From: Algoriphagus halophilus
GTDB lineage: Bacteria; Bacteroidota; Bacteroidia; Cytophagales; Cyclobacteriaceae
Direction: 5' to 3'
Assembly (NCBI RefSeq): GCF_900129785.1
Contig: NZ_FSRC01000002.1
Location: 186,001 to 250,000, forward strand
DNA length: 64,000 nt
Each line of letters opens with the position of its first letter. Position 1 is the stretch's first letter. Positions 34,502 through 44,193 of this stretch are shown in pieces. The notes below the pieces were generated by a model. It made no database searches and was not told the DNA's origin. It was given only the letters and a program-made list of their open reading frames with translations. The position numbers and the translations under genes are program-made.

Positions 34502-34530
34502 AATTTCACTAATAAATTTTAACATAACTA

Positions 34531-34554
34531 AAAGCTCCTATTTGGAGCTTTTTT
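34531..34554 (+). terminator. Rho-independent terminator after gltX and the small gene
   Basis: AAAGCTCC-TATTT-GGAGCTTT with a T run, 30 nt after the small gene's stop. It lies only 29 nt before the start of the next gene at 34583. Confidence 0.9.
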
Positions 34555-34582: not shown

Positions 34583-37243
34583 ATGTTTCGAAATATTCAT
34601 TTTTGGTCTTCTAGACGAATTTTCTTTTGTATTCTTTTTTTAATTGCTCCATTACACCTCTACGGGCAAAATATCAACTTCTCAGGTACAATCACAGATG
34701 AATCAACCGGGCAAGCCCTGAAAGACATTCATGTTTTTGTCCCTAATTCTACCTTCCAAACTTTTTCAGATTCCCTAGGCCGCTTCACTATTCCAAATAT
34801 GCCTGCCGGAAGGTGGGAAATTGCATTGATCGGTGAAGGTTTTGAGAAAATTCAACAAGTCATAGAGCTTAAGAAAACACAGGTACCCAACTTTGACTTT
34901 TCGCTTTTGCCTACCAAAATAATGGCTCCTCCTGCCTTAAAATTGACAGAAAAAAAGAGAGAGAAATTAATAGAAGATTTTACCTCCCATTTTTTATTCA
35001 CCAGCAAGTATCAGAATCAGCTACGGCTTCTAAACCCGGAAGGATTGCTGTTTTTTGAAAAGGATAATTCAAATGAGCTGATGGTCGACACCAATGGATA
35101 CCTGATTTTCATCAATGATCAAACGGGCTTCCTTTTCACCTTGTATTTTGACCAACCTCAATCTCTTGAAGACCCAATTTCAACTGATCAAATCGAACTT
35201 GCCTTCTTGGATTTAATCAATGAGGTACCTGAATTAATTGAAGCAAGAAATTCAGAGCGGGAAAAGATTTTCTTGAATTCCCCAGCTTTCACATTAAGGC
35301 AAATGCTGACTGGAGAAATCAGTACTTCGGACGAACCTGAAGGAATTCAGGTAGCCTTTGGTAAATATCCGGGAGAATATCTTTTAACCTTTCCTAAGCC
35401 TTTTATTATCCAAGGAAAAGGATCGATTAGTTATTCTGATGACCAGCTTCCCGTAAGGTCTGAAGGAGCCGTGGTTTTTGAAGATCAGCTGATGCTAGAG
35501 GGAGGCTTTTCAGAGATCCATCCCTTAGATCAATTGCCAAGAAATTTCAATGGCGAAAAAACCCTTCAATTGGCCAACATTGAAAAGAATGCCCAAGTCA
35601 TGCAAGAAAAAGTGTTTTTGCAGACGGATCGAAGTCATTACCTAAAAGGGGAGACATTATTTTTCAAAGCCAATATGATTTATGCCAACCCATTATTGGG
35701 ACCAGAATTGAGCAAAGTACTCCACATAGAAATTTTAGATACAACAGGCTACCAGGAAATCCATGAAATCTTCAAGATTAACCAGGGTAAAGCATTCGGT
35801 TCAATAGAATTGCCTGTAGGGCTGAATCAGCAAAATTATCTCATAAGGGCCTATACCTCATGGAGCCTTAATTATGGTAATCATCAAGGAACAATACTTC
35901 CTATTCAAATTCTAGATCCCAGCTTAAGACCATTGAACTCAACTCCCGAAACACTGGCAAAAAAAGTAAGTATCTTTTCAGACAAACAAGTATATCAGGC
36001 AGGAGAACTAGTCAACTTAAATGTAATGGTTCGAGATGATCAGGGAAGACCCATTGCTTCTGATCTAGCGATCAGGGTATTGGATTTAAGTCAAAGTAAT
36101 CCTGTAAACTCTTCAAAAACCATTGAGGAAAGTTTTGAGCTCTCTCCTGTTCCAATTGACACGGACTTCACCAAATACCAATATCCTATAGAAAGTAGAT
36201 TTACTGTAAAAGGAGAAATCCAGGACACTGATAAGAACCCCATAGAAGGGAACGTAACTGCCTTAATCAATGGATTGGGAAACATAGAAAAGTATAAAGT
36301 TGGGAAGGATGGAGAATTTGAAATCCCTCAGCTCTCCTTTGAAGGTGAATTTGAAATTGCGGTACAAGGTACTTCGAAAGAAGGTTTTCCAATCAGGCAA
36401 ATATCATTGGAAGTAGAAGATTATCACCTAGAGGGCCCTCTCACTCATTTTAATTTCCCAAAACTGACATCCAATAATGTTCCTCCTTTGACGGCACAGG
36501 AAATACAGGCTAACATGGAGCAGGGCGAGATTTTGTTGGATGAATTTGTGATTGATGAGGAGAAATCAGATCCAACAGGCCCCATGATTTATGGACAGCC
36601 TGATAGTTCTGTTGACCCTAGCAAATTACAATTGAATGGCAGCACATCTCAATTCATTTATTTATTAGCAGGCCAGGTGGCTGGAATGAGCGTTACTGGA
36701 AACCCTCCATCCATCAGATTTAGAAACGGAGGTGAGCCCTTGGTTATGATTGATGGTGTACCTGTGAATCCTCCATCAGGACCTATGATCGGCGGGGGGA
36801 GTCCTGCCGGCCGTACCGCAACGGATATTATATCCGGAATCAATGTCTTTGCTATTGAGCGAGTGGAAGTCATCAAAAGAACCGTCCCTATGTTAGGTGA
36901 AGCAGGAAGAAATGGCATTATCTCTATTTTCATGAAAACTGGAGAAGAACTTCAAAAGGCGAATGACGCCATCAGAAATAATTTTACTCCTTTCAAACTT
37001 CAAGGATTTCAACAACAAAAATCTTTTCAAGAAGTGGTGGAGGAACAACAGCTCAATCCTTTGTTGAGGGGGTTGAAACCTACCTTGTATTGGAATCCAG
37101 AAGTAATCACCAATACAGAAGAACTATCCCAAGCAATTCAATTTAAAAGTTCAGAATCAGCTGCGCCAATGTGGGTGGAAATCAAAGGAATTACAGCAGA
37201 TGGACAACCGGTGGAAGGTAAATTCGTCATTAATCAACAATAG
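34583..37243 (+). CDS. Secreted carboxypeptidase-regulatory-like / MG2 / TonB-plug protein (paralog A)
   Basis: 886 residues. Signal peptide 1-29 (ending YGQ); a CarboxypepD-reg-like beta sandwich (about 31-110, FSGTITDESTGQALKDIHVF); an uncharacterised middle region (about 125-330); a macroglobulin MG2-like domain (about 341-455, EKVFLQTDRSHYLKGETLFF, ending IRAYTSWSLNYG); a second Ig-like module; a TonB-plug-like domain near 689-795 (YLLAGQVAGMSVTG, LVMIDGVPVNPPSG, ERVEVIKRTVPMLGEAGRNG) and a terminal module with LYWNPE near 837. No TonB-receptor barrel is present, so it cannot be a transporter by itself. It is a paralog of the next gene. Role unknown; partner or surveillance protein of the outer membrane is inference. 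Confidence 0.8.
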   Translation: MFRNIHFWSSRRIFFCILFLIAPLHLYGQNINFSGTITDESTGQALKDIHVFVPNSTFQTFSDSLGRFTIPNMPAGRWEIALIGEGFEKIQQVIELKKTQVPNFDFSLLPTKIMAPPALKLTEKKREKLIEDFTSHFLFTSKYQNQLRLLNPEGLLFFEKDNSNELMVDTNGYLIFINDQTGFLFTLYFDQPQSLEDPISTDQIELAFLDLINEVPELIEARNSEREKIFLNSPAFTLRQMLTGEISTSDEPEGIQVAFGKYPGEYLLTFPKPFIIQGKGSISYSDDQLPVRSEGAVVFEDQLMLEGGFSEIHPLDQLPRNFNGEKTLQLANIEKNAQVMQEKVFLQTDRSHYLKGETLFFKANMIYANPLLGPELSKVLHIEILDTTGYQEIHEIFKINQGKAFGSIELPVGLNQQNYLIRAYTSWSLNYGNHQGTILPIQILDPSLRPLNSTPETLAKKVSIFSDKQVYQAGELVNLNVMVRDDQGRPIASDLAIRVLDLSQSNPVNSSKTIEESFELSPVPIDTDFTKYQYPIESRFTVKGEIQDTDKNPIEGNVTALINGLGNIEKYKVGKDGEFEIPQLSFEGEFEIAVQGTSKEGFPIRQISLEVEDYHLEGPLTHFNFPKLTSNNVPPLTAQEIQANMEQGEILLDEFVIDEEKSDPTGPMIYGQPDSSVDPSKLQLNGSTSQFIYLLAGQVAGMSVTGNPPSIRFRNGGEPLVMIDGVPVNPPSGPMIGGGSPAGRTATDIISGINVFAIERVEVIKRTVPMLGEAGRNGIISIFMKTGEELQKANDAIRNNFTPFKLQGFQQQKSFQEVVEEQQLNPLLRGLKPTLYWNPEVITNTEELSQAIQFKSSESAAPMWVEIKGITADGQPVEGKFVINQQ

Positions 37244-37283
37244 CTTACTTTTAAAGTTTAAACCCCAACTATAAACAAAGAAC

Positions 37284-40055
37284 ATGAAGTTCATTTTAAC
37301 AACCCTATTCGTATTCCTTGGAATTCACTTTTTGGTTCTTGCCCAATCAGGCACAGTCACTGGAGTCGTCACTGATGCGGAAACAGGTGAAACCTTGCCT
37401 TTTTGTAATGTATTTATCAATAATACGACCATCGCTACAGTCACTGACATGGATGGGAAATACGTTCTTTCAAATCTGGAACCAGGCCCTTTGGAAATTG
37501 GATTCTCCTTTATCGGCTATGTAGCTGAAACCAAAAAAATAACACTCAACCCAGGAGGCACTTCCACAGTCAACTTAAATATGCAACCTTTTGCTCAGGA
37601 ATTGAGCGATGTGGAAATCAAAGCCTCTAGAGACAAAAGTTGGGAAAGAGACCTTAGAAAATTTGAAAATCTCTTTTTAGGGAATGACGAAATTGCCAGT
37701 AAGTCAACTATTGAAAACCCTTGGGTGATCGATTTCCCTGAACCCGAAGAGAAAAACACGTTCCAAGCCACGGCTGGGATTCCTTTAGAAATCACCAATA
37801 ATTATTTAGGCTACAAAATCAGCTTTGACTTAAAAGAGTTTTTTGACTCTCCTACCAACTATAGAATCGCTGGTGCTGCCAGATTCGAAGAAATGGTTCC
37901 AGAAACAGAGGATCAACGTAGTACCTGGGAAAATAACCGAGCTGAGGTCTACAGAAAATCTCCAATGAATATGTTTCGAGCGATGATCACTGGTGATCAA
38001 GAAAAAGAAGGATTCTTCCTCTACGGTGATAAACCAGGAGGGTCTCCGTCCATGAATATGCGCTCAGATATTTTCGCAAACGAATTGGGTAAATCAGTAG
38101 TGCCTTACAAACCAGATAATTTGGTCACACCTGCTCCAAATAAAGAGGGTGAGTATTTGATCAATTTGAAAGGAAGAATTGAGATTCACTACCAAAAAGG
38201 ATATTCTCAAGTCAACACTTATAAGGATGCTCCTTACCCTGTTTCCTGGTTAGAAGTGTATAAAAACACGGTGCGTGTCAAGGAAAACGGAATGGTCTTA
38301 AACCCTCAGGATTTGGTATTCTCAGGAGATATGGATCGGAAAAGAATTTCTACTCTACTTCCTTTGGATTATGATGCAGAGAAAGCCATCCAACTTCAAG
38401 ACTTAGAAAAAACAGCCGCAAATTATCAGGAGAAAGTGTTTGTCCATAAAGACAAACCTTACTACTACGCGGGAGATCAACTCTATTTAAAGGCCTATTT
38501 TAAATATGGGAATCCATACTTACGGGATGAACTTAGCAAGGTATTGTATGTAGAAGTGATTAATCAAAATAGAGATTTGATTATTGAAAAGAAGCTTCCA
38601 ATACGAGATGGGATTGCTGTTGGAAATTTCTCACTTCCTGACACGCTTTCTCAGGAAAATTATTTCTTAAGAGCCTATACCAATTGGCAAAAAAATTATG
38701 GCCCTAACCATTATTTTGTGGAACCTGTCAGCATACTAACTCCTTACCAAAGAGTGGTAGAATTTGAATCCAGAGAATTTCGAGAGCCTACTGGAATCGC
38801 GGTAACGGCCGATAAGGAGGATTATGGAAAAAAAGAAAAAGTCACTTTGACAATTAAAACGCTTTCTGAAAAACAGATGCCTCTTTCTTCCAATATTTCT
38901 GTGGCTGTAGTAGATCAAACACAGGTTTTACCTATTGAGGAAACAAGTAATATCAGTACTGACTTCCAACTTGAATCCATTCCATCCAGCATGGGATTGG
39001 ACCGTTTTACTTATCCGGTAGAAAAATCTCTTTCCTTGGAGGGCTTTGTAACCGATGATAAAGGCAAACCCACTTCTGCCTTGATTACGGCCTTTGTCAA
39101 CGATTTTGAGGGAATGGTGGACCTAGAATCCAATAGAGATGGAGAATTCACAATGGAAGAAATGGAGTTTTACGGCCCTTTAAAACTTGCATTTAAAGCC
39201 ACGGACAAAAAAGGAAATACAGCAGGCACCGTAAAATTAATAGATGATTTAAAGGCGCCAGTAGCACTTCCAACGAATGCATATTTCCCAAAAAAGGAAA
39301 CCGTATCCACTTCTATCAGACCTGAACCACCGTTATTAGAAGAACAAGAAGATGCTCCCGAGGAAGAAGAAGCAAAAGAAAAAACTGAGAAAAAAGCCCT
39401 CTATGGCACTCCAAACTATATTGTACCCGGAGAAAAATTAATGGCCACTGGCAATACCGCTGATTTGGTCAATAGTTTGGCAGGGAATGTTCCAAGTATG
39501 CGAGTAACCTTAGCGGGAGCCTCTGGACAGCAACAAATCAGGTTGAGAGGAGGTGCTGTTTCAGCAAATGGAAACCTAGAGCCATTAGTAATGGTGAATG
39601 GAACAATATTGGCACAAACAGGTGCTACTACCGCTGCTGATAATTTAAGGAATATTAATGTTCAGGACATTGACCGAGTGGAAGTGGTAACTCGAACGGT
39701 ATCTATGCTAGGTGATCAGGGTAGAAATGGTGTAATTGCTGTTTATCTGAAGGAATATGATCCCAATGCAGAAAATCCATTGATGTCTGGAGAAGGCTTG
39801 AATACTTATACTGTCGAAGGTTATACCACTTATAAGCCCATTTATGTAATGGATTATTCGCAGGAAAACGATCCTGACTTGATTGACAAAAGACAAACTT
39901 TATACTGGAATCCATATTTAGTTACGGATGATAATGGAACAGTCACCATCACCTTTTACACCAATGAGAATGGAGGCCCTATGAGTGTATATGTAAAAGG
40001 CCTAGGGGTAAATGGACAGGGATTATCCGGTTCTTTTACGATCAATTCCAAATAA
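37284..40055 (+). CDS. Secreted carboxypeptidase-regulatory-like / MG2 / TonB-plug protein (paralog B)
   Basis: 923 residues, same architecture as the gene before it: signal peptide 1-20 (ending VLAQ); CarboxypepD-reg-like domain (SGTVTGVVTDAETGETLPFC at 22-41); a middle region with a YRKSPMNMFRAMITGDQEKE segment that parallels FLNSPAFTLRQMLTGE in paralog A; MG2-like domain from about 381 (EKVFVHKDKPYYYAGDQLYL ... RAYTNWQKNYG); an acidic linker near 688-705; a plug-like domain (LVNSLAGNVPSMRVTLAG, LEPLVMVNGTIL, DRVEVVTRTVSMLGDQGRNG); and a terminal LYWNPYLVTDDNGTVTITFY module like that of alpha-2-macroglobulin-type proteins. No beta barrel. The pair looks like a tandem duplication that has diverged. 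Confidence 0.8.
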   Translation: MKFILTTLFVFLGIHFLVLAQSGTVTGVVTDAETGETLPFCNVFINNTTIATVTDMDGKYVLSNLEPGPLEIGFSFIGYVAETKKITLNPGGTSTVNLNMQPFAQELSDVEIKASRDKSWERDLRKFENLFLGNDEIASKSTIENPWVIDFPEPEEKNTFQATAGIPLEITNNYLGYKISFDLKEFFDSPTNYRIAGAARFEEMVPETEDQRSTWENNRAEVYRKSPMNMFRAMITGDQEKEGFFLYGDKPGGSPSMNMRSDIFANELGKSVVPYKPDNLVTPAPNKEGEYLINLKGRIEIHYQKGYSQVNTYKDAPYPVSWLEVYKNTVRVKENGMVLNPQDLVFSGDMDRKRISTLLPLDYDAEKAIQLQDLEKTAANYQEKVFVHKDKPYYYAGDQLYLKAYFKYGNPYLRDELSKVLYVEVINQNRDLIIEKKLPIRDGIAVGNFSLPDTLSQENYFLRAYTNWQKNYGPNHYFVEPVSILTPYQRVVEFESREFREPTGIAVTADKEDYGKKEKVTLTIKTLSEKQMPLSSNISVAVVDQTQVLPIEETSNISTDFQLESIPSSMGLDRFTYPVEKSLSLEGFVTDDKGKPTSALITAFVNDFEGMVDLESNRDGEFTMEEMEFYGPLKLAFKATDKKGNTAGTVKLIDDLKAPVALPTNAYFPKKETVSTSIRPEPPLLEEQEDAPEEEEAKEKTEKKALYGTPNYIVPGEKLMATGNTADLVNSLAGNVPSMRVTLAGASGQQQIRLRGGAVSANGNLEPLVMVNGTILAQTGATTAADNLRNINVQDIDRVEVVTRTVSMLGDQGRNGVIAVYLKEYDPNAENPLMSGEGLNTYTVEGYTTYKPIYVMDYSQENDPDLIDKRQTLYWNPYLVTDDNGTVTITFYTNENGGPMSVYVKGLGVNGQGLSGSFTINSK

Positions 40056-40090
40056 TTACGAGTGCTAGTTGGATTTCTTTAATTTTGAGC

Positions 40091-40768
40091 ATGAACCGAA
40101 TTATTTTGGCATTGGTCCTTGTGATCAGTTCCTTTTCTCTAAACGCACAGACAAGTATTGGAATCAAAGGAGGATATACCACCTCCTCCTTTTCTTACAT
40201 CCCTGCCTTGAATATCAGAAGCATTTCCGTTGACGGACTCTCTGCTCCTACTTTCGCTTTTGTTTTCGAACATTTCAATGCAAAAAATGCAGGAATTGAA
40301 TTGAATGTTCAATATCTGTCTACTGGTTACAACCAGAGCATTACAGATACAGAAGGGGCTATTTTGAGCAATGAAACTCAGCTTGATTACCTGAAAATAC
40401 CCATGATGGCGAGCTTCTTTATAGGAAGATCCGGAAGATTTCAAATCAAATTCGGACCACATCTTGGTTACTTATTGAGTGCAAATGATATCCAGAGGGA
40501 TATTATAGATAGCTCGCCTCCTGAAATCCCCACTTATGGAGGGGCCGATGACAATCCAAAAAAATTAATGTATGGACTAAGCGCCGGCGCAGGTATTTCT
40601 AAACTTTTTGGTAAAAGTACCATTGCTGGAGAGGTACGGTTTGGTTATGATTTTACCAATCCAGAATCCCAAGAAAGGATCTTTGATTTAAATTTCACCA
40701 CTTTGGAATTCACTCTTGCATACCTTTTTCAAATCAAGGATGCCAAGGTGAAAGTGACACCAAAATAA
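40091..40768 (+). CDS. PorT-family outer-membrane beta-barrel protein
   Basis: 225 residues: signal peptide 1-20 (ending LNAQ), then alternating amphipathic strands of a small barrel, beginning TSIGIKGGYTTSSFSYIP. Segments such as KIPMMASFFIGRSGRFQIKF and KFGPHLGYLLS are typical of the outer membrane beta-barrel (PorT-like) domain. The C-terminus is not a strong Omp F/W signal (ends KVKVTPK). The ATG at 40091 is preferred to the TTG two codons upstream. It lies 35 nt after paralog B. Confidence 0.8.
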   Translation: MNRIILALVLVISSFSLNAQTSIGIKGGYTTSSFSYIPALNIRSISVDGLSAPTFAFVFEHFNAKNAGIELNVQYLSTGYNQSITDTEGAILSNETQLDYLKIPMMASFFIGRSGRFQIKFGPHLGYLLSANDIQRDIIDSSPPEIPTYGGADDNPKKLMYGLSAGAGISKLFGKSTIAGEVRFGYDFTNPESQERIFDLNFTTLEFTLAYLFQIKDAKVKVTPK

Positions 40769-40855
40769 TTCAGCTGATAAGAATTGGCTGAAACTTTTTA
40801 TTTTTTTTAAACCCATTGTCATATATCCCGAATAATATCCGACTAACCTATGTAA

Positions 40856-41350
40856 ATGAATCGCCAGCAACTTGACCATATTCTCCAAACCTACCACAGG
40901 GATGCTTACATCTGGGCAAGGCAGTGCTGTTCATTTGATGACGAATTAGCCAAGGATGTTCTTCAACAGGTTTATTTAAAAATCTTAGAAGGAAAAGCAA
41001 AGCTGAAAAATATTGATAAGGCAAAGACTTGGCTTTTCTCAATTATTCGATATACTTCCATAGATCAATTAAGGGCCTCCGGCAAATTGGTATCCTTGGA
41101 AGAGTCCTATGAAGTACCAGATGTACAGGAGGAAATGGATCAGACGGATTACCAAGGGTTAATCAAGAAATTACCCAAAATGCAACAGGAGGTACTACTG
41201 ATGGTATTTTATCATCAGATGACAATAGAGCAAAGTGCCGAAGTTCTACAAATCGGACTAGGAACCGCAAGAACACATTACGATCGCGGTAAAAAGAAAC
41301 TCAAGGAAATCATTACAAAAACCCAAACACAGGAGCACTATGGAAGATAA
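40856..41350 (+). CDS. ECF-type RNA polymerase sigma factor
   Basis: 164 residues with sigma2 (AKDVLQQVYLKILEGKAK near 33-50, containing the core-binding region, and KTWLFSIIRYTSIDQLR near 57-73) and sigma4 (LPKMQQEVLLMVFYHQMTIEQSAEVLQIGLGTARTHYDRGKKKL, about 106-150, a helix-turn-helix). The separation by a short acidic linker is typical of extracytoplasmic function sigma factors. It overlaps the next gene by 11 nt, so the pair is translationally coupled as sigma/anti-sigma pairs usually are. Confidence 0.9.
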   Translation: MNRQQLDHILQTYHRDAYIWARQCCSFDDELAKDVLQQVYLKILEGKAKLKNIDKAKTWLFSIIRYTSIDQLRASGKLVSLEESYEVPDVQEEMDQTDYQGLIKKLPKMQQEVLLMVFYHQMTIEQSAEVLQIGLGTARTHYDRGKKKLKEIITKTQTQEHYGR

Positions 41351-41651
41351 CGCAGAACTGAAAAGGTTTTTTGAAAATATGAAGGAGCAAGATCAACAAT
41401 TGGAAATCCCTCCTTACCCAAGCTATAAAACAAGAAAAATCAATTTCTGGATTCCGGCGGGGATTGCAGCCTCTTTGGCATTGCTAGGCTTGATTATGAA
41501 CGAGCCTCAACCAATTCCTGAAGCACCGAAAGAAGTTTTAATTATCACACTTCAGGAAGATGAAAACAATGAACAAGAATTTATCATTGAAGAAACTACC
41601 TATTTGGATGTTTGGGAATCTCCCACTGCCTCTTTACTTACTGACTTCTAA
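41340..41651 (+). CDS. Small single-pass membrane protein, probable anti-sigma factor
   Basis: 103 residues. An N-terminal cytoplasmic part (MEDNAELKRFFENMKEQDQQ, 1-33), one transmembrane helix at about 35-52 (INFWIPAGIAASLALLGLIM) and an acidic periplasmic tail. No zinc-finger anti-sigma motif is present. Position and 11 nt overlap with the sigma gene make it the candidate anti-sigma factor; the sequence alone does not prove it. The C-terminal part is proline-poor and rich in Glu and Asp. Confidence 0.65.
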   Translation: MEDNAELKRFFENMKEQDQQLEIPPYPSYKTRKINFWIPAGIAASLALLGLIMNEPQPIPEAPKEVLIITLQEDENNEQEFIIEETTYLDVWESPTASLLTDF

Positions 41652-41664
41652 ACCAACTTATATT

Positions 41665-42444
41665 ATGAAATACCTACTCATCCTCTTTTTTATCCTAGGT
41701 GCCGGAATGGCCCAGGGGCAGGTAGCCACCTCTGTTTATTCCAATCAGGATATTTTCCAAAGGAATCTATATTCTGCTGATAGAATCATGGGAATGCGAG
41801 AAGAATTGGAGCTAACAGATGCTCAGGTCGCCAATATCAAAAAAGCCTACAGCAAAAATGCCGGAGAATTCAGCACACTTAAATGGGACTTAGATGCGGC
41901 CACTTTAAAATTGAAAAACTTACTGGATCAACCGAAAATCGATCAAGCGGAAGTCCAAAAACAGATGGATGCAGTGCTGAAATTGGAAAACCAGTTGAAG
42001 AAATTGCAATTGGACAACCTGGTCTCCATTAAAAATGAGTTGACCGAAGAGCAGCAAGAAAGTCTTCAATCTTCCCCAAATTTAATTTTTGGTAGAGTTT
42101 CTGGTGTCCAGTCGATGACAGGAGGACAAGCCATTCAATTCGGCCAAAATGGTCTTTCCCAAACAAAAGTGATCGGATATCCAGCAGCCACAAGCATCAA
42201 GGGAGGAGGCGCAGTAAGCCCTAGTGTATCAGTTCGTGTAGCAGGCAGCGCCAAAGATGGGAATGAGCCAATGTATTTTCTAGATACAAAAAACGGCATG
42301 AAACCCATCAAAGAAATTAAGGATATCGAACCGAATAACATTGAAAGTATCTCTGTGTTAAAAGGCGATGCAGCTATTGAAAAGTTTGGAGAAAAAGCTA
42401 AAAATGGTGCTATCGTCATCAAACTTAAAAACGAGCCTAAATAA
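41665..42444 (+). CDS. Periplasmic LTxxQ (Spy-like) protein with TonB-plug-like C-terminal half
   Basis: 259 residues from the ATG at 41665. Signal peptide 1-20 (ending AQGQ); a helical hairpin-type region (about 30-135) with MREELELTDAQVANIKKAY and LTEEQQES, matching the LTxxQ motifs of Spy/CpxP stress chaperones; then a plug-like half (about 136-259) containing IFGRVSGVQSMTGG, SVSVRVAGSAKDGNEPMYFLD and NIESISVLKGDAAIEKFG. The last three are the RIRG/LYVVDG/SISVLKD landmarks of TonB-receptor plugs. A periplasmic sensor for the coupled sigma/anti-sigma pair is a reasonable reading. The ATG at 41665 is preferred because an upstream frame opening at 41560 lacks a signal peptide and overlaps the preceding gene. 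Confidence 0.75.
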   Translation: MKYLLILFFILGAGMAQGQVATSVYSNQDIFQRNLYSADRIMGMREELELTDAQVANIKKAYSKNAGEFSTLKWDLDAATLKLKNLLDQPKIDQAEVQKQMDAVLKLENQLKKLQLDNLVSIKNELTEEQQESLQSSPNLIFGRVSGVQSMTGGQAIQFGQNGLSQTKVIGYPAATSIKGGGAVSPSVSVRVAGSAKDGNEPMYFLDTKNGMKPIKEIKDIEPNNIESISVLKGDAAIEKFGEKAKNGAIVIKLKNEPK

Positions 42445-42510: not shown

Positions 42511-44193
42511 TTAATCCAAAAACTTCCAACTAGCTTTATGATCCCTCTTCAAAGGATTCCCAGTCACTTTCGCCCTCAAAATTTCAATTGGCATGGCGTT
42601 CTGACTTAAAATCAAATCATGAAATTCCTTTTCTCCCATTTTACCAGAATTGACCACTTCGTCTCTCATAGAGTAAATTTCCAACGCCCCAATCATGTAG
42701 GCAATTTGATAAAGCGGACCATATCTTCCTTCAAAAGATCTTCTGACTTCCGCTTCCGCATTGGCTCTTTCGTGCCCTACTTTATCCACCAACAAGTCAA
42801 TACATTCTTGTGGAGTCATTTCTTCCAGATGATAGCTCAAGGAGAAGATAATTCTGGCGCATCTATGCATTCTCCAAAATAGCATCCCGATTTTATCTTT
42901 CGCATCTCTTGGAAAACCTCTGTCCCAAAGAACAAACTCCCAATACAAAGCCCATCCTTCTGTCCAAAATGGAGTTCTGAACATCCTCCTATGCGTCATG
43001 TTTCTTTGATTCATAAACTGCTGTAAATGGTGTCCAGGAATCAATTCATGCTGCACTGTTGCCCTTGAAAAATGAGGATTATTCCCTCTCATGCTCATCA
43101 TTTTCTCTTCATGGCTCATCTCAGAAGTAGGATAGGAAATCTGAATGGTCTCACCTCCCAAGAAGAAGGGACTTACTCGCTGTCTCTCAGCAGAAATCAT
43201 GGTGGTCCTCCAAGTTTCTTTTGCCATTGGAGGCACGGTCACCAAGTCATTTTTTTCTACATATTCGGTAGCTTCTTCTGCTAGTCGAATCACCTCTGCA
43301 GGCCATTCCCCGGCCGGCAAATACGTCTCTTTGACCATCTCCAAGGCAGCTTTCCAATCATCGCCAAATCCCAATTCGTTAGATGCTTTCAGCATTTCTG
43401 CCTCACACCATTCAAATTGCTTTTCTGCTTCTGCGATTAATTCTTCCGGGCTATAAGCAATCATTTCGAAGGCCAACTGATTCAATAATGCCTCACGCCC
43501 AATAGGTTTTCCGATAATCCCACTTCCATCATCCTTCACAGAATTGGTAAAATGCCCACGTAATGCTTTGGCATAAGCCTTCATGCTTTCATCCAGTTTT
43601 TTCCAAGGTTCAGGCATCCACCAAGTAAACATGGGATCATAATCATAATAGTAGGAGTAAGCTTCTCCAACTACTCTATTCAATCGTTCAACCGCTTCTG
43701 CAGCCAAATCTGCTTTTTGCCAACTGGTATATTTTGGCATACTAGGAAGTGCTGCTAATTGAGCATCTACTTTTTTGGCTACCTCATTCCACGTAGCTGC
43801 CAAGGCTTGGGAATCCGGAGTTTTCGCTCTTCTCCTTCCTACCGCAAACTCTTCAAGCGGCGCTCCAAAAGCCACCACGGAAGAAATTTCTTCAAAGGCT
43901 CTTCGCTCCAGATCTAATTCAGCCAATTCCTTTTCCAAAAAATTTCTGAACAAGACGTAATCAATCTTGCCGTCTTCAGATAGGCTATTGTAATTCAACT
44001 TATTTAAGTCATTTAGGTAGTTGGTGTTGAATTCTTCAATTCGATCAAAGTATTCAAGAGACAAGTTATTCGTGTATAACCTCCTCAAAGCACCCCAGTC
44101 AGCCTGGTAAGTTTCAATGGTCTGAACTAGTTCTGTGGCAGATATACTATTCAAAACCATACTCAATAATACGAGTAGTAGTGTTTTCTTCAT
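42511..44193 (-). CDS. DUF885 family putative metallopeptidase
   Basis: 560 residues: a signal peptide 1-19 (ending ISA) and a long helical domain with HELIPGHHLQQFMNQRN near residue 382, the H-E-x-x-P-G-H zinc signature of the DUF885 family (distantly related to M2/M32-like carboxypeptidases). ERQRVSPFFLGGETIQISYP just before it and EGWALYWEFVLWDRG after it are also conserved landmarks. Predicted periplasmic. Substrate unknown. It shares no operon with its neighbours. Confidence 0.85.
   Translation of the reverse strand: MKKTLLLVLLSMVLNSISATELVQTIETYQADWGALRRLYTNNLSLEYFDRIEEFNTNYLNDLNKLNYNSLSEDGKIDYVLFRNFLEKELAELDLERRAFEEISSVVAFGAPLEEFAVGRRRAKTPDSQALAATWNEVAKKVDAQLAALPSMPKYTSWQKADLAAEAVERLNRVVGEAYSYYYDYDPMFTWWMPEPWKKLDESMKAYAKALRGHFTNSVKDDGSGIIGKPIGREALLNQLAFEMIAYSPEELIAEAEKQFEWCEAEMLKASNELGFGDDWKAALEMVKETYLPAGEWPAEVIRLAEEATEYVEKNDLVTVPPMAKETWRTTMISAERQRVSPFFLGGETIQISYPTSEMSHEEKMMSMRGNNPHFSRATVQHELIPGHHLQQFMNQRNMTHRRMFRTPFWTEGWALYWEFVLWDRGFPRDAKDKIGMLFWRMHRCARIIFSLSYHLEEMTPQECIDLLVDKVGHERANAEAEVRRSFEGRYGPLYQIAYMIGALEIYSMRDEVVNSGKMGEKEFHDLILSQNAMPIEILRAKVTGNPLKRDHKASWKFLD

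What the first reader, a model, noticed from the sequence alone, without database searches (positions are those of the whole stretch)
34583..42444. Locus of three barrel-less TonB-plug proteins beside an ECF sigma/anti-sigma pair
Seen: two tandem 886 and 923 residue secreted proteins with carboxypeptidase-regulatory-like, MG2-like and TonB-plug-like domains, a PorT-like barrel, an ECF sigma, a coupled one-pass membrane protein, and a Spy-like protein with its own plug half. All three plug proteins share the landmark S/V-x-V-(L/I)-K...(G)-x-x-G-x-N-G, yet none has a barrel. In classical systems the plug is inside the TonB receptor and signals through FecR. Here the plug-like domains stand alone beside the sigma pair. 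Inference: a regulated envelope module in which free plugs either cap or test other outer-membrane transporters, or report unfolded barrels. This is the strongest candidate for an undescribed system here.
Basis: partly seen in the sequence, partly recalled or inferred. Interest (0 to 1): 0.72.

Follow-up and report, generated by a model that had tools for sequence, protein, structure and literature searches.

The report
Stress-sigma switch with half-plug sensor
Beside some independent secreted proteins sits a conserved three-gene switch of Algoriphagus and related bacteria, in which a chaperone-like protein carrying half of a transporter 'plug' probably helps to hold a stress-response sigma factor in check; what it senses is unknown.

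Summary
The plug-like domains are real but do not form one locus. PL1, PL2 and the small barrel OMP look like a separate unit: terminator-like hairpins bracket it, no sigma promoter was found before it, PL2 is in 16 and PL1 in 7 of 27 Algoriphagus-type loci, and none of the three was found beside the sigma genes in 13 regions from other genera. What is conserved is the trio sigma / anti-sigma-like protein / Spy-plug protein (adjacent in 55 of 58 loci). The Spy-plug is a Spy/CnrX/ZraP-like cradle, a disordered tether and the C-terminal half of a SusC/RagA plug, kept in 58 of 58. The anti-sigma-like protein ends in a conserved tail, WESPTxSLLTE[FY]. All 56 sigma upstreams read carry TGTC[AC]TA[TC] 37-40 nt before the start; of 48 sites fetched by genome-wide pattern searches in relatives, 46 precede the sigma or one lipoprotein (DUF4221-like propeller). 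Best reading: a CnrH-CnrY-CnrX-like ECF switch without a conserved metal site, with a half-plug added to the sensor. New variant of a known kind. The signal, and tail-sensor binding, are inference.

The parts
40817..40846 (+). Promoter of the sigma operon: TGTCATATA-N16-ACTAA, 39 nt before the sigma ATG
   Evidence: 56 of 56 upstream regions have TGTC[AC]TA[CT] 37-40 nt before ATG (mean 0.4 of 56 in mononucleotide shuffles); only window match with fewer than 2 mismatches
40856..41350 (+). ECF sigma factor, 164 aa
   Evidence: Pfam Sigma70_r2 and r4_2; TIGR02937 62.8 bits over cut-off 42.9
41340..41651 (+). Putative one-pass anti-sigma, 103 aa, overlaps the sigma gene by 11 nt; basic stretch then hydrophobic segment (about residues 36-53, by eye), so C-terminus probably periplasmic
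   Evidence: Sequence; adjacency in 55 of 58 loci; no Pfam family up to E 1; some relatives named 'Anti-sigma factor' in UniRef
41613..41648 (+). Conserved C-terminal tail of the anti-sigma-like protein, consensus WESPTxSLLTE[FY]-end
   Evidence: W92 55/55, L99 55/55, E93 54/55, S98 54/55 distinct rows; mean top-residue frequency 0.82 vs 0.39-0.61 in the other segments; synonymous codons vary
41665..42444 (+). Spy-plug protein, 259 aa: signal peptide, Spy/CnrX-type cradle, disordered tether (residues 142-197), half-plug
41752..42072 (+). Spy/CnrX/ZraP-like helical domain (residues 30-136)
   Evidence: AlphaFold2 block means mostly above 90; best chains of ZraP, Spy, CnrX and CpxP at Foldseek probability 0.99-1.00, but no E-value under 0.001
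42268..42432 (+). Half-plug, C-terminal half of a SusC/RagA plug (residues 202-256), strand-strand-strand-helix-strand
   Evidence: TIGR04056/04057, below cut-offs; profile hits SusC/RagA chains 5t3r, 6zlt, 6sml at 6e-12 to 2e-11; model block means 84-92
34583..37243 (+). PL1: CarboxypepD_reg + MG2 + Plug, no barrel (not part of the sigma unit)
   Evidence: in 7 of 27 Algoriphagus-type loci
37284..40055 (+). PL2: CarbopepD_reg_2 + Plug, no barrel (not part of the sigma unit)
   Evidence: in 16 of 27 Algoriphagus-type loci
40085..40768 (+). Small outer-membrane beta-barrel OMP_b-brl_2; beside sigma in 27 of 27 Algoriphagus-type loci, found in none of 13 other-genus regions
34530..34552 (+). Terminator-like hairpin upstream of PL1
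   Evidence: 11 found in the region, 8.6 expected in shuffles, so weak alone
40769..40792 (+). Terminator-like hairpin between OMP and the sigma promoter
   Evidence: 10-bp stem then T-rich tail; weak alone

Best explanation
The conserved object is a self-contained ECF signalling unit that works like CnrH-CnrY-CnrX. Shown from sequence: a sigma, a small anti-sigma-like membrane protein and a periplasmic Spy/CnrX-fold protein with a tethered SusC/RagA half-plug are encoded together, behind a conserved promoter-like element that also stands before one lipoprotein gene in many relatives. Inferred: the short cytoplasmic N-terminus of the membrane protein holds the sigma; its conserved C-terminal tail is bound in the periplasm by the cradle of the Spy-plug protein (a dimer, by analogy with Spy and CnrX as recalled); when the Spy-plug protein is drawn off by a client of the cradle or a partner of the half-plug (most likely a SusC-type receptor or its assembly factor), the anti-sigma lets go, and the sigma transcribes its own operon and, where present, the DUF4221-like propeller lipoprotein. 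PL1, PL2 and OMP belong to a neighbouring, independent unit.
For: Trio adjacent, same strand and order in 55 of 58 loci (two misses are contig ends, one is a distant sigma); also in a genome of another family of the phylum, G606. Spy-plug found in 43 of 59 genus genomes and in 37 of 39 good-quality ones. Half-plug NG motif in 58 of 58: 55 by pattern, 3 by eye. Tail conserved, at protein level. Cradle resembles ZraP/CnrX/NccX/Spy/CpxP. Promoter element in 56 of 56 sigma upstreams. Of 28 newly fetched genus sites 16 precede sigma, 10 the lipoprotein, 2 neither; of 20 sites in 17 genomes of 13 other genera 15 precede sigma (one truncated) and 5 the lipoprotein. Matches exceed the reversed-pattern control: 40 vs 14, 20 vs 2. 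The 20 lipoprotein genes that the script could read, of 25 places, have the -35 element, up to one mismatch, 46-64 nt upstream. In Cupriavidus, inactivating CnrY or CnrX switches the system on (PMC4803752, passages read), the precedent for a sensor that helps to repress.
Against: No result shows that the tail binds the Spy-plug, that the membrane protein binds the sigma, or what the half-plug binds. A PDB sequence search with the anti-sigma profile finds no CnrY. The lipoprotein is not found at E<=1e-60 in 19 of 43 genus genomes that have the Spy-plug, so it is not an obligatory target. The strict pattern matches in only 22 of 59 genus genomes, and in 4 of 28 loci scanned it misses even the sigma site. 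With up to 2 mismatches it is not enriched in the own genome (32 vs 69 in control). Foldseek matches have high probability but none is under E 0.001, and VIA-align Z for a helical hairpin is not specific.
Confidence: 0.62

Rival explanations
1. The Spy-plug protein is only an output: a chaperone made under sigma control, while the anti-sigma senses by itself, for example by proteolysis after a protease recognises its C-terminal SLLTE[FY] tail, as in RseA/DegS-type regulation (recalled).
For: The tail sits at the free C-terminus and its last aligned column is F or Y in 54 of 55 rows; Spy/CpxP proteins are classical stress outputs (recalled); the gene is in the operon behind the conserved element.
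Against: Co-encoding in 55 of 58 loci and the CnrYXH precedent favour a sensor; the conserved WESPT part is more than a hydrophobic end would need (inference).
Confidence: 0.25
2. A metal-responsive CnrX-like switch, as database names such as 'periplasmic heavy metal sensor' suggest.
For: Metal_resist domain at its cut-off, ZraP and CnrX structural matches.
Against: Among His, Met and Cys, one cradle column is mostly His (79%, Tyr in the window) and two mostly Met (86%, 79%); no conserved His cluster. Neither gene that recurs behind the promoter in relatives looks like metal efflux.
Confidence: 0.08
3. One reading: PL1, PL2 and the Spy-plug are three free plugs of one sigma-controlled module that caps or tests outer-membrane transporters.
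For: Physical adjacency; all three match plug models to some degree; OMP beside sigma in 27 of 27 Algoriphagus-type loci.
Against: With up to one mismatch, the only matches in the window and in the 28 loci L054-L081 are at the sigma gene or its truncated copy (the scan misses even the sigma site in 4 of the 28, so diverged sites could be missed); terminator-like hairpins; PL2 in 16 and PL1 in 7 of 27 loci; none found in 13 other-genus regions.
Confidence: 0.05

Closest known systems
CnrH-CnrY-CnrX of Cupriavidus metallidurans (and NccX)
   Same: ECF sigma, small membrane anti-sigma, periplasmic sensor of the CnrX/ZraP fold, autoregulated operon (precedent read as passages of PMC4803752 and PMC7406223)
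   Different: No conserved His cluster, added half-plug on a tether of about 55 residues, gene order sigma / anti-sigma / sensor instead of Y-X-H, a lipoprotein instead of efflux genes behind the promoter, no sequence match of the anti-sigma profile to a CnrY chain in the PDB
Spy / CpxP / ZraP periplasmic chaperones and sensors
   Same: Helical cradle with LTxxQ-like motifs
   Different: Fused half-plug; genetic partner is an ECF pair, not a two-component system
SusC/RagA TonB-linked receptors
   Same: C-terminal half of the plug with the SusC/RagA signature
   Different: No TonB-receptor barrel and no N-terminal half of the plug
FecI-FecR-FecA cell-surface signalling
   Same: ECF sigma, membrane anti-sigma, plug-related part
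   Different: No FecR domain found in the anti-sigma-like protein, no receptor; plug half is on a soluble Spy-like protein
DUF4221 lipoproteins (structure 3s9j)
   Same: Top Foldseek match of the target lipoprotein is the DUF4221 structure 3s9j
   Different: Pfam scores below cut-off (15.9-18.3 vs 23.4 in 3 orthologues, none in 2 others); function of the family unknown

Membership tests
CnrYXH-type ECF system | ECF sigma gene in one operon with a small anti-sigma and a sensor | tested here: inconclusive
   Gene order, spacing and shared promoter fit, but the anti-sigma and sensor roles themselves are not tested
CnrYXH-type ECF system | Sensor with CnrX/ZraP fold | tested here: met
   Foldseek: 3lay_A, 2y39, 3epv_A, 2y3d_A, 4clv_A at probability 0.96-1.00, TMt 0.52-0.84, E 0.0095-0.46; no E-value under 0.001
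CnrYXH-type ECF system | Conserved metal ligands (His cluster; CnrX ligands recalled) | tested here: not met
   One column mostly His among 56 rows
CnrYXH-type ECF system | Anti-sigma homologous to CnrY | tested here: inconclusive
   No PDB chain of CnrY matched by profile A1; short, divergent family
CnrYXH-type ECF system | Single transmembrane segment in the anti-sigma, N-terminus inside | tested here: inconclusive
   Seen by eye in the sequence; no topology predictor run
FecI/FecR/FecA signalling | FecR domain in the anti-sigma and an adjacent TonB receptor | tested here: not met
   No Pfam family in the anti-sigma-like protein up to E 1; no full receptor among the six proteins scanned
SusC/RagA receptor | TIGR04056 match at its cut-off, with barrel | tested here: not met
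   PL2 79.5, PL1 27.5 and Spy-plug 34.9 bits against cut-off 368
Spy/CpxP (LTXXQ / Metal_resist) | Family model match | tested here: inconclusive
   Metal_resist 29.2 at cut-off 29.2; LTXXQ 21.6 below 24.3
DUF4221 (target lipoprotein) | PF13970 at curated cut-off | tested here: not met
   No hit for L086; 15.9-18.3 bits for 3 of 4 orthologues, cut-off 23.4; top Foldseek match 3s9j

The most novel reading that the evidence does not exclude
The half-plug is a surrogate of an unassembled SusC-type receptor: it competes with real plugs for whatever handles them in the periplasm (chaperone, assembly machine or TonB partner), so the Spy-plug protein measures the load of receptor biogenesis and, through the anti-sigma tail, sets an ECF sigma. 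This would be a receptor-assembly counterpart of the E. coli sigma-E pathway in Bacteroidota.
Probability: 0.2. Interest if true: 0.8.

Novelty: new variant of a known kind. Interest (0 to 1): 0.52.

Why it matters
A passage in PMC7406223 says that in Bacteroidetes only 6% of ECF sigmas are associated with a class I anti-sigma domain, and that other modes of regulation may dominate. This trio is a compact candidate for such a mode, with a defined tail, sensor, promoter and one recurrent target, so each link can be tested directly. If the half-plug does report on receptor assembly, it gives a handle on how bacteria rich in SusC-type receptors monitor their outer membrane.

Tried and rejected
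Rejected: one module of three plugs. Rejected: metal sensor by conserved ligands. Rejected: FecIRA membership. The co-occurrence of Spy-plug and lipoprotein (24 of 24 lipoprotein genomes have the Spy-plug, 0 of 16 genomes without it have the lipoprotein) is not used as evidence, because most genomes without the Spy-plug are small or incomplete.

Led nowhere: pattern search with 2 mismatches in the own genome (32 matches vs 69 in control); own-genome sites before a 154-aa secreted protein and a thioredoxin-like lipoprotein are exact but were not seen among the 48 sites read in relatives. VIA-align ranking was dominated by generic helical hairpins. The PL2 paralogue in the same genome (L166) is not among the 50 Plug matches, so it is not counted as a plug protein. 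That covers open-licence PMC text only. Of the listed papers only passages of PMC7406223 and PMC4803752 were read; the rest were seen as search listings.

Not done: complex prediction of the tail with the Spy-plug; topology prediction; structure of PL1/PL2; 5 of 25 lipoprotein places were not read by the script; 8 of 40 genus promoter matches were not fetched.
Full report
What is there. The window lies in an Algoriphagus genome (the sigma is 98% identical to one in A. lutimaris). Reading the + strand: PL1 (34583-37243), PL2 (37284-40055), a small barrel OMP (40085-40768), an ECF sigma (40856-41350), a 103-aa anti-sigma-like protein (41340-41651) and a Spy-plug protein. The last most likely begins at 41665 with a signal-peptide-like stretch, not at 41560 where the longest ORF starts. 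Pfam supports the plug assignments, marginally for PL1 (24.3 vs 23.9 bits) and below cut-off for the Spy-plug (20.6); for the Spy-plug a profile of 35 relatives finds SusC/RagA chains of the PDB at about 1e-11. None has room for a receptor barrel.

Two units, not one. BLAST in 58 loci (L025-L082) shows sigma, anti-sigma-like and Spy-plug genes adjacent in the same order in 55; L035 and L049 are cut by contig ends, L082 holds only a distant sigma. Some loci come from the same genome. Among the 27 loci of the Algoriphagus type (L054-L079 and L081) OMP is present in 27, PL2 in 16, PL1 in 7; two of the PL2 misses (L067, L073) are contigs too short to tell. In 12 wider regions from other genera plus Litoribacter (L080) the trio stands without a homologue of PL1, PL2 or OMP at E 1e-5. 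Terminator-like hairpins lie before PL1 and between OMP and the sigma promoter (weak alone, 11 found where 8.6 are expected by chance). With up to one mismatch the promoter pattern is found only at sigma (or its truncated copy in L080) in the window and in 28 loci, though it misses the sigma site itself in 4 of the 28.

The anti-sigma tail. Over 55 distinct sequences the last 12 residues are the most conserved segment (mean top-residue frequency 0.82 against 0.39-0.61): W and one L invariant, E and one S in 54. Codons vary synonymously there, so the constraint is on protein. The tail follows a hydrophobic stretch with basic residues on its N-terminal side, so it should be periplasmic (by eye). 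I infer that it is the docking peptide for the Spy-plug cradle; a protease or PDZ contact is the main rival. Some database relatives are already named 'Anti-sigma factor'.

Promoter and regulon. All 56 sigma upstream regions hold TGTC[AC]TA[CT] 37-40 nt before the ATG (mean 0.4 of 56 in mononucleotide shuffles); 43 of 56 also fit the second element at the expected spacing. In the own genome exact matches precede the sigma, a 154-aa secreted protein and a thioredoxin-like lipoprotein, and a one-mismatch site precedes a 396-aa lipoprotein; with two mismatches allowed the pattern is not enriched (32 vs 69 in control). In 59 genomes of the genus there were 40 matches, in 22 genomes, against 14 for the reversed pattern; of the 28 newly fetched, 16 precede sigma, 10 the 392-396 aa lipoprotein, 2 neither. 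In 21 genomes from 16 other genera there were 20 matches (17 genomes, 13 genera) against 2, 15 before sigma (one a truncated copy) and 5 before the lipoprotein. A lipoprotein profile finds 25 places in 24 of 59 genus genomes; the script read 20 of them and these 20 have the element, up to one mismatch, 46-64 nt upstream (the other five were not read either). Its model (mean pLDDT 83.3) has DUF4221 structure 3s9j as top match, followed by other beta-propellers, though Pfam scores stay under the cut-off. Against a fixed two-gene regulon: 19 of 43 genus genomes with the Spy-plug lack the lipoprotein at that threshold.

Distribution. The Spy-plug is found in 30 of 148 sampled family genomes (22 of 84 genera) at E 1e-20, and in 43 of 59 genus genomes, 37 of 39 good ones. 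In an order sample the anti-sigma profile matched 16 of 241 genomes; the matches outside the family, and two others inside it, are weak (about 1e-4 to 1e-3). In a phylum sample of 395 genomes the only strong match outside the genus is G606, of another family, where the whole trio recurs with an extended tail; the other matches outside are about 1e-4 for the anti-sigma profile, or hit only the half-plug.

Mechanism and comparison. The arrangement works like CnrH-CnrY-CnrX, where CnrH is released from a CnrYX complex and loss of CnrY or CnrX turns the system on (PMC4803752, passages). It should not be filed as a metal system: the metal-site feature is not met and the recurrent target is a lipoprotein. 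It should not be filed under FecIRA: there is no FecR domain and no receptor. What looks new is a plug half on a soluble Spy-like protein tied to an ECF sigma. Nothing here shows what the half-plug meets.

Noticed in passing
L210:1438-1992 (+): A small protein with a signal-peptide-like start and two tandem half-plugs, downstream of an OmpA-like protein (both by eye): half-plugs occur as free modules elsewhere in the phylum.
   Followed up: no
L211:949-1683 (+): Another half-plug at the C-terminus of a small protein with several cysteines in its N-terminal part.
   Followed up: no
L080:3287-3652 (+): Litoribacter populi has a second, truncated sigma copy behind its own promoter match about 4.7 kb upstream of the complete trio.
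   Followed up: partly
L166:5096-7867 (+): A PL2 paralogue (924 aa, about 27% identical) in the same genome; no sigma, OMP or PL1 recognised among its neighbours, and the Plug model does not hit it at E 0.01.
   Followed up: partly
window 42511-44193 (-): A 560-aa protein whose homologues (60-98% identical) lie on the opposite strand after the trio in 25 of 27 Algoriphagus-type loci and in several other genera; conserved neighbour, no promoter match of its own.
   Followed up: partly
L083:1014-1478 (-) and L084:1494-2705 (+): Exact promoter matches before a 154-aa secreted protein and a thioredoxin-like lipoprotein in the own genome; not seen among the sites read in relatives, perhaps species-specific targets.
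   Followed up: partly
P0018, P0343, P0222: Relatives of Spy-plug, anti-sigma and PL2 are listed for Algoriphagus machipongonensis; a number of Spy-plug relatives carry names such as 'TonB-dependent receptor' or 'SusC/RagA receptor' although they have no barrel.
   Followed up: no
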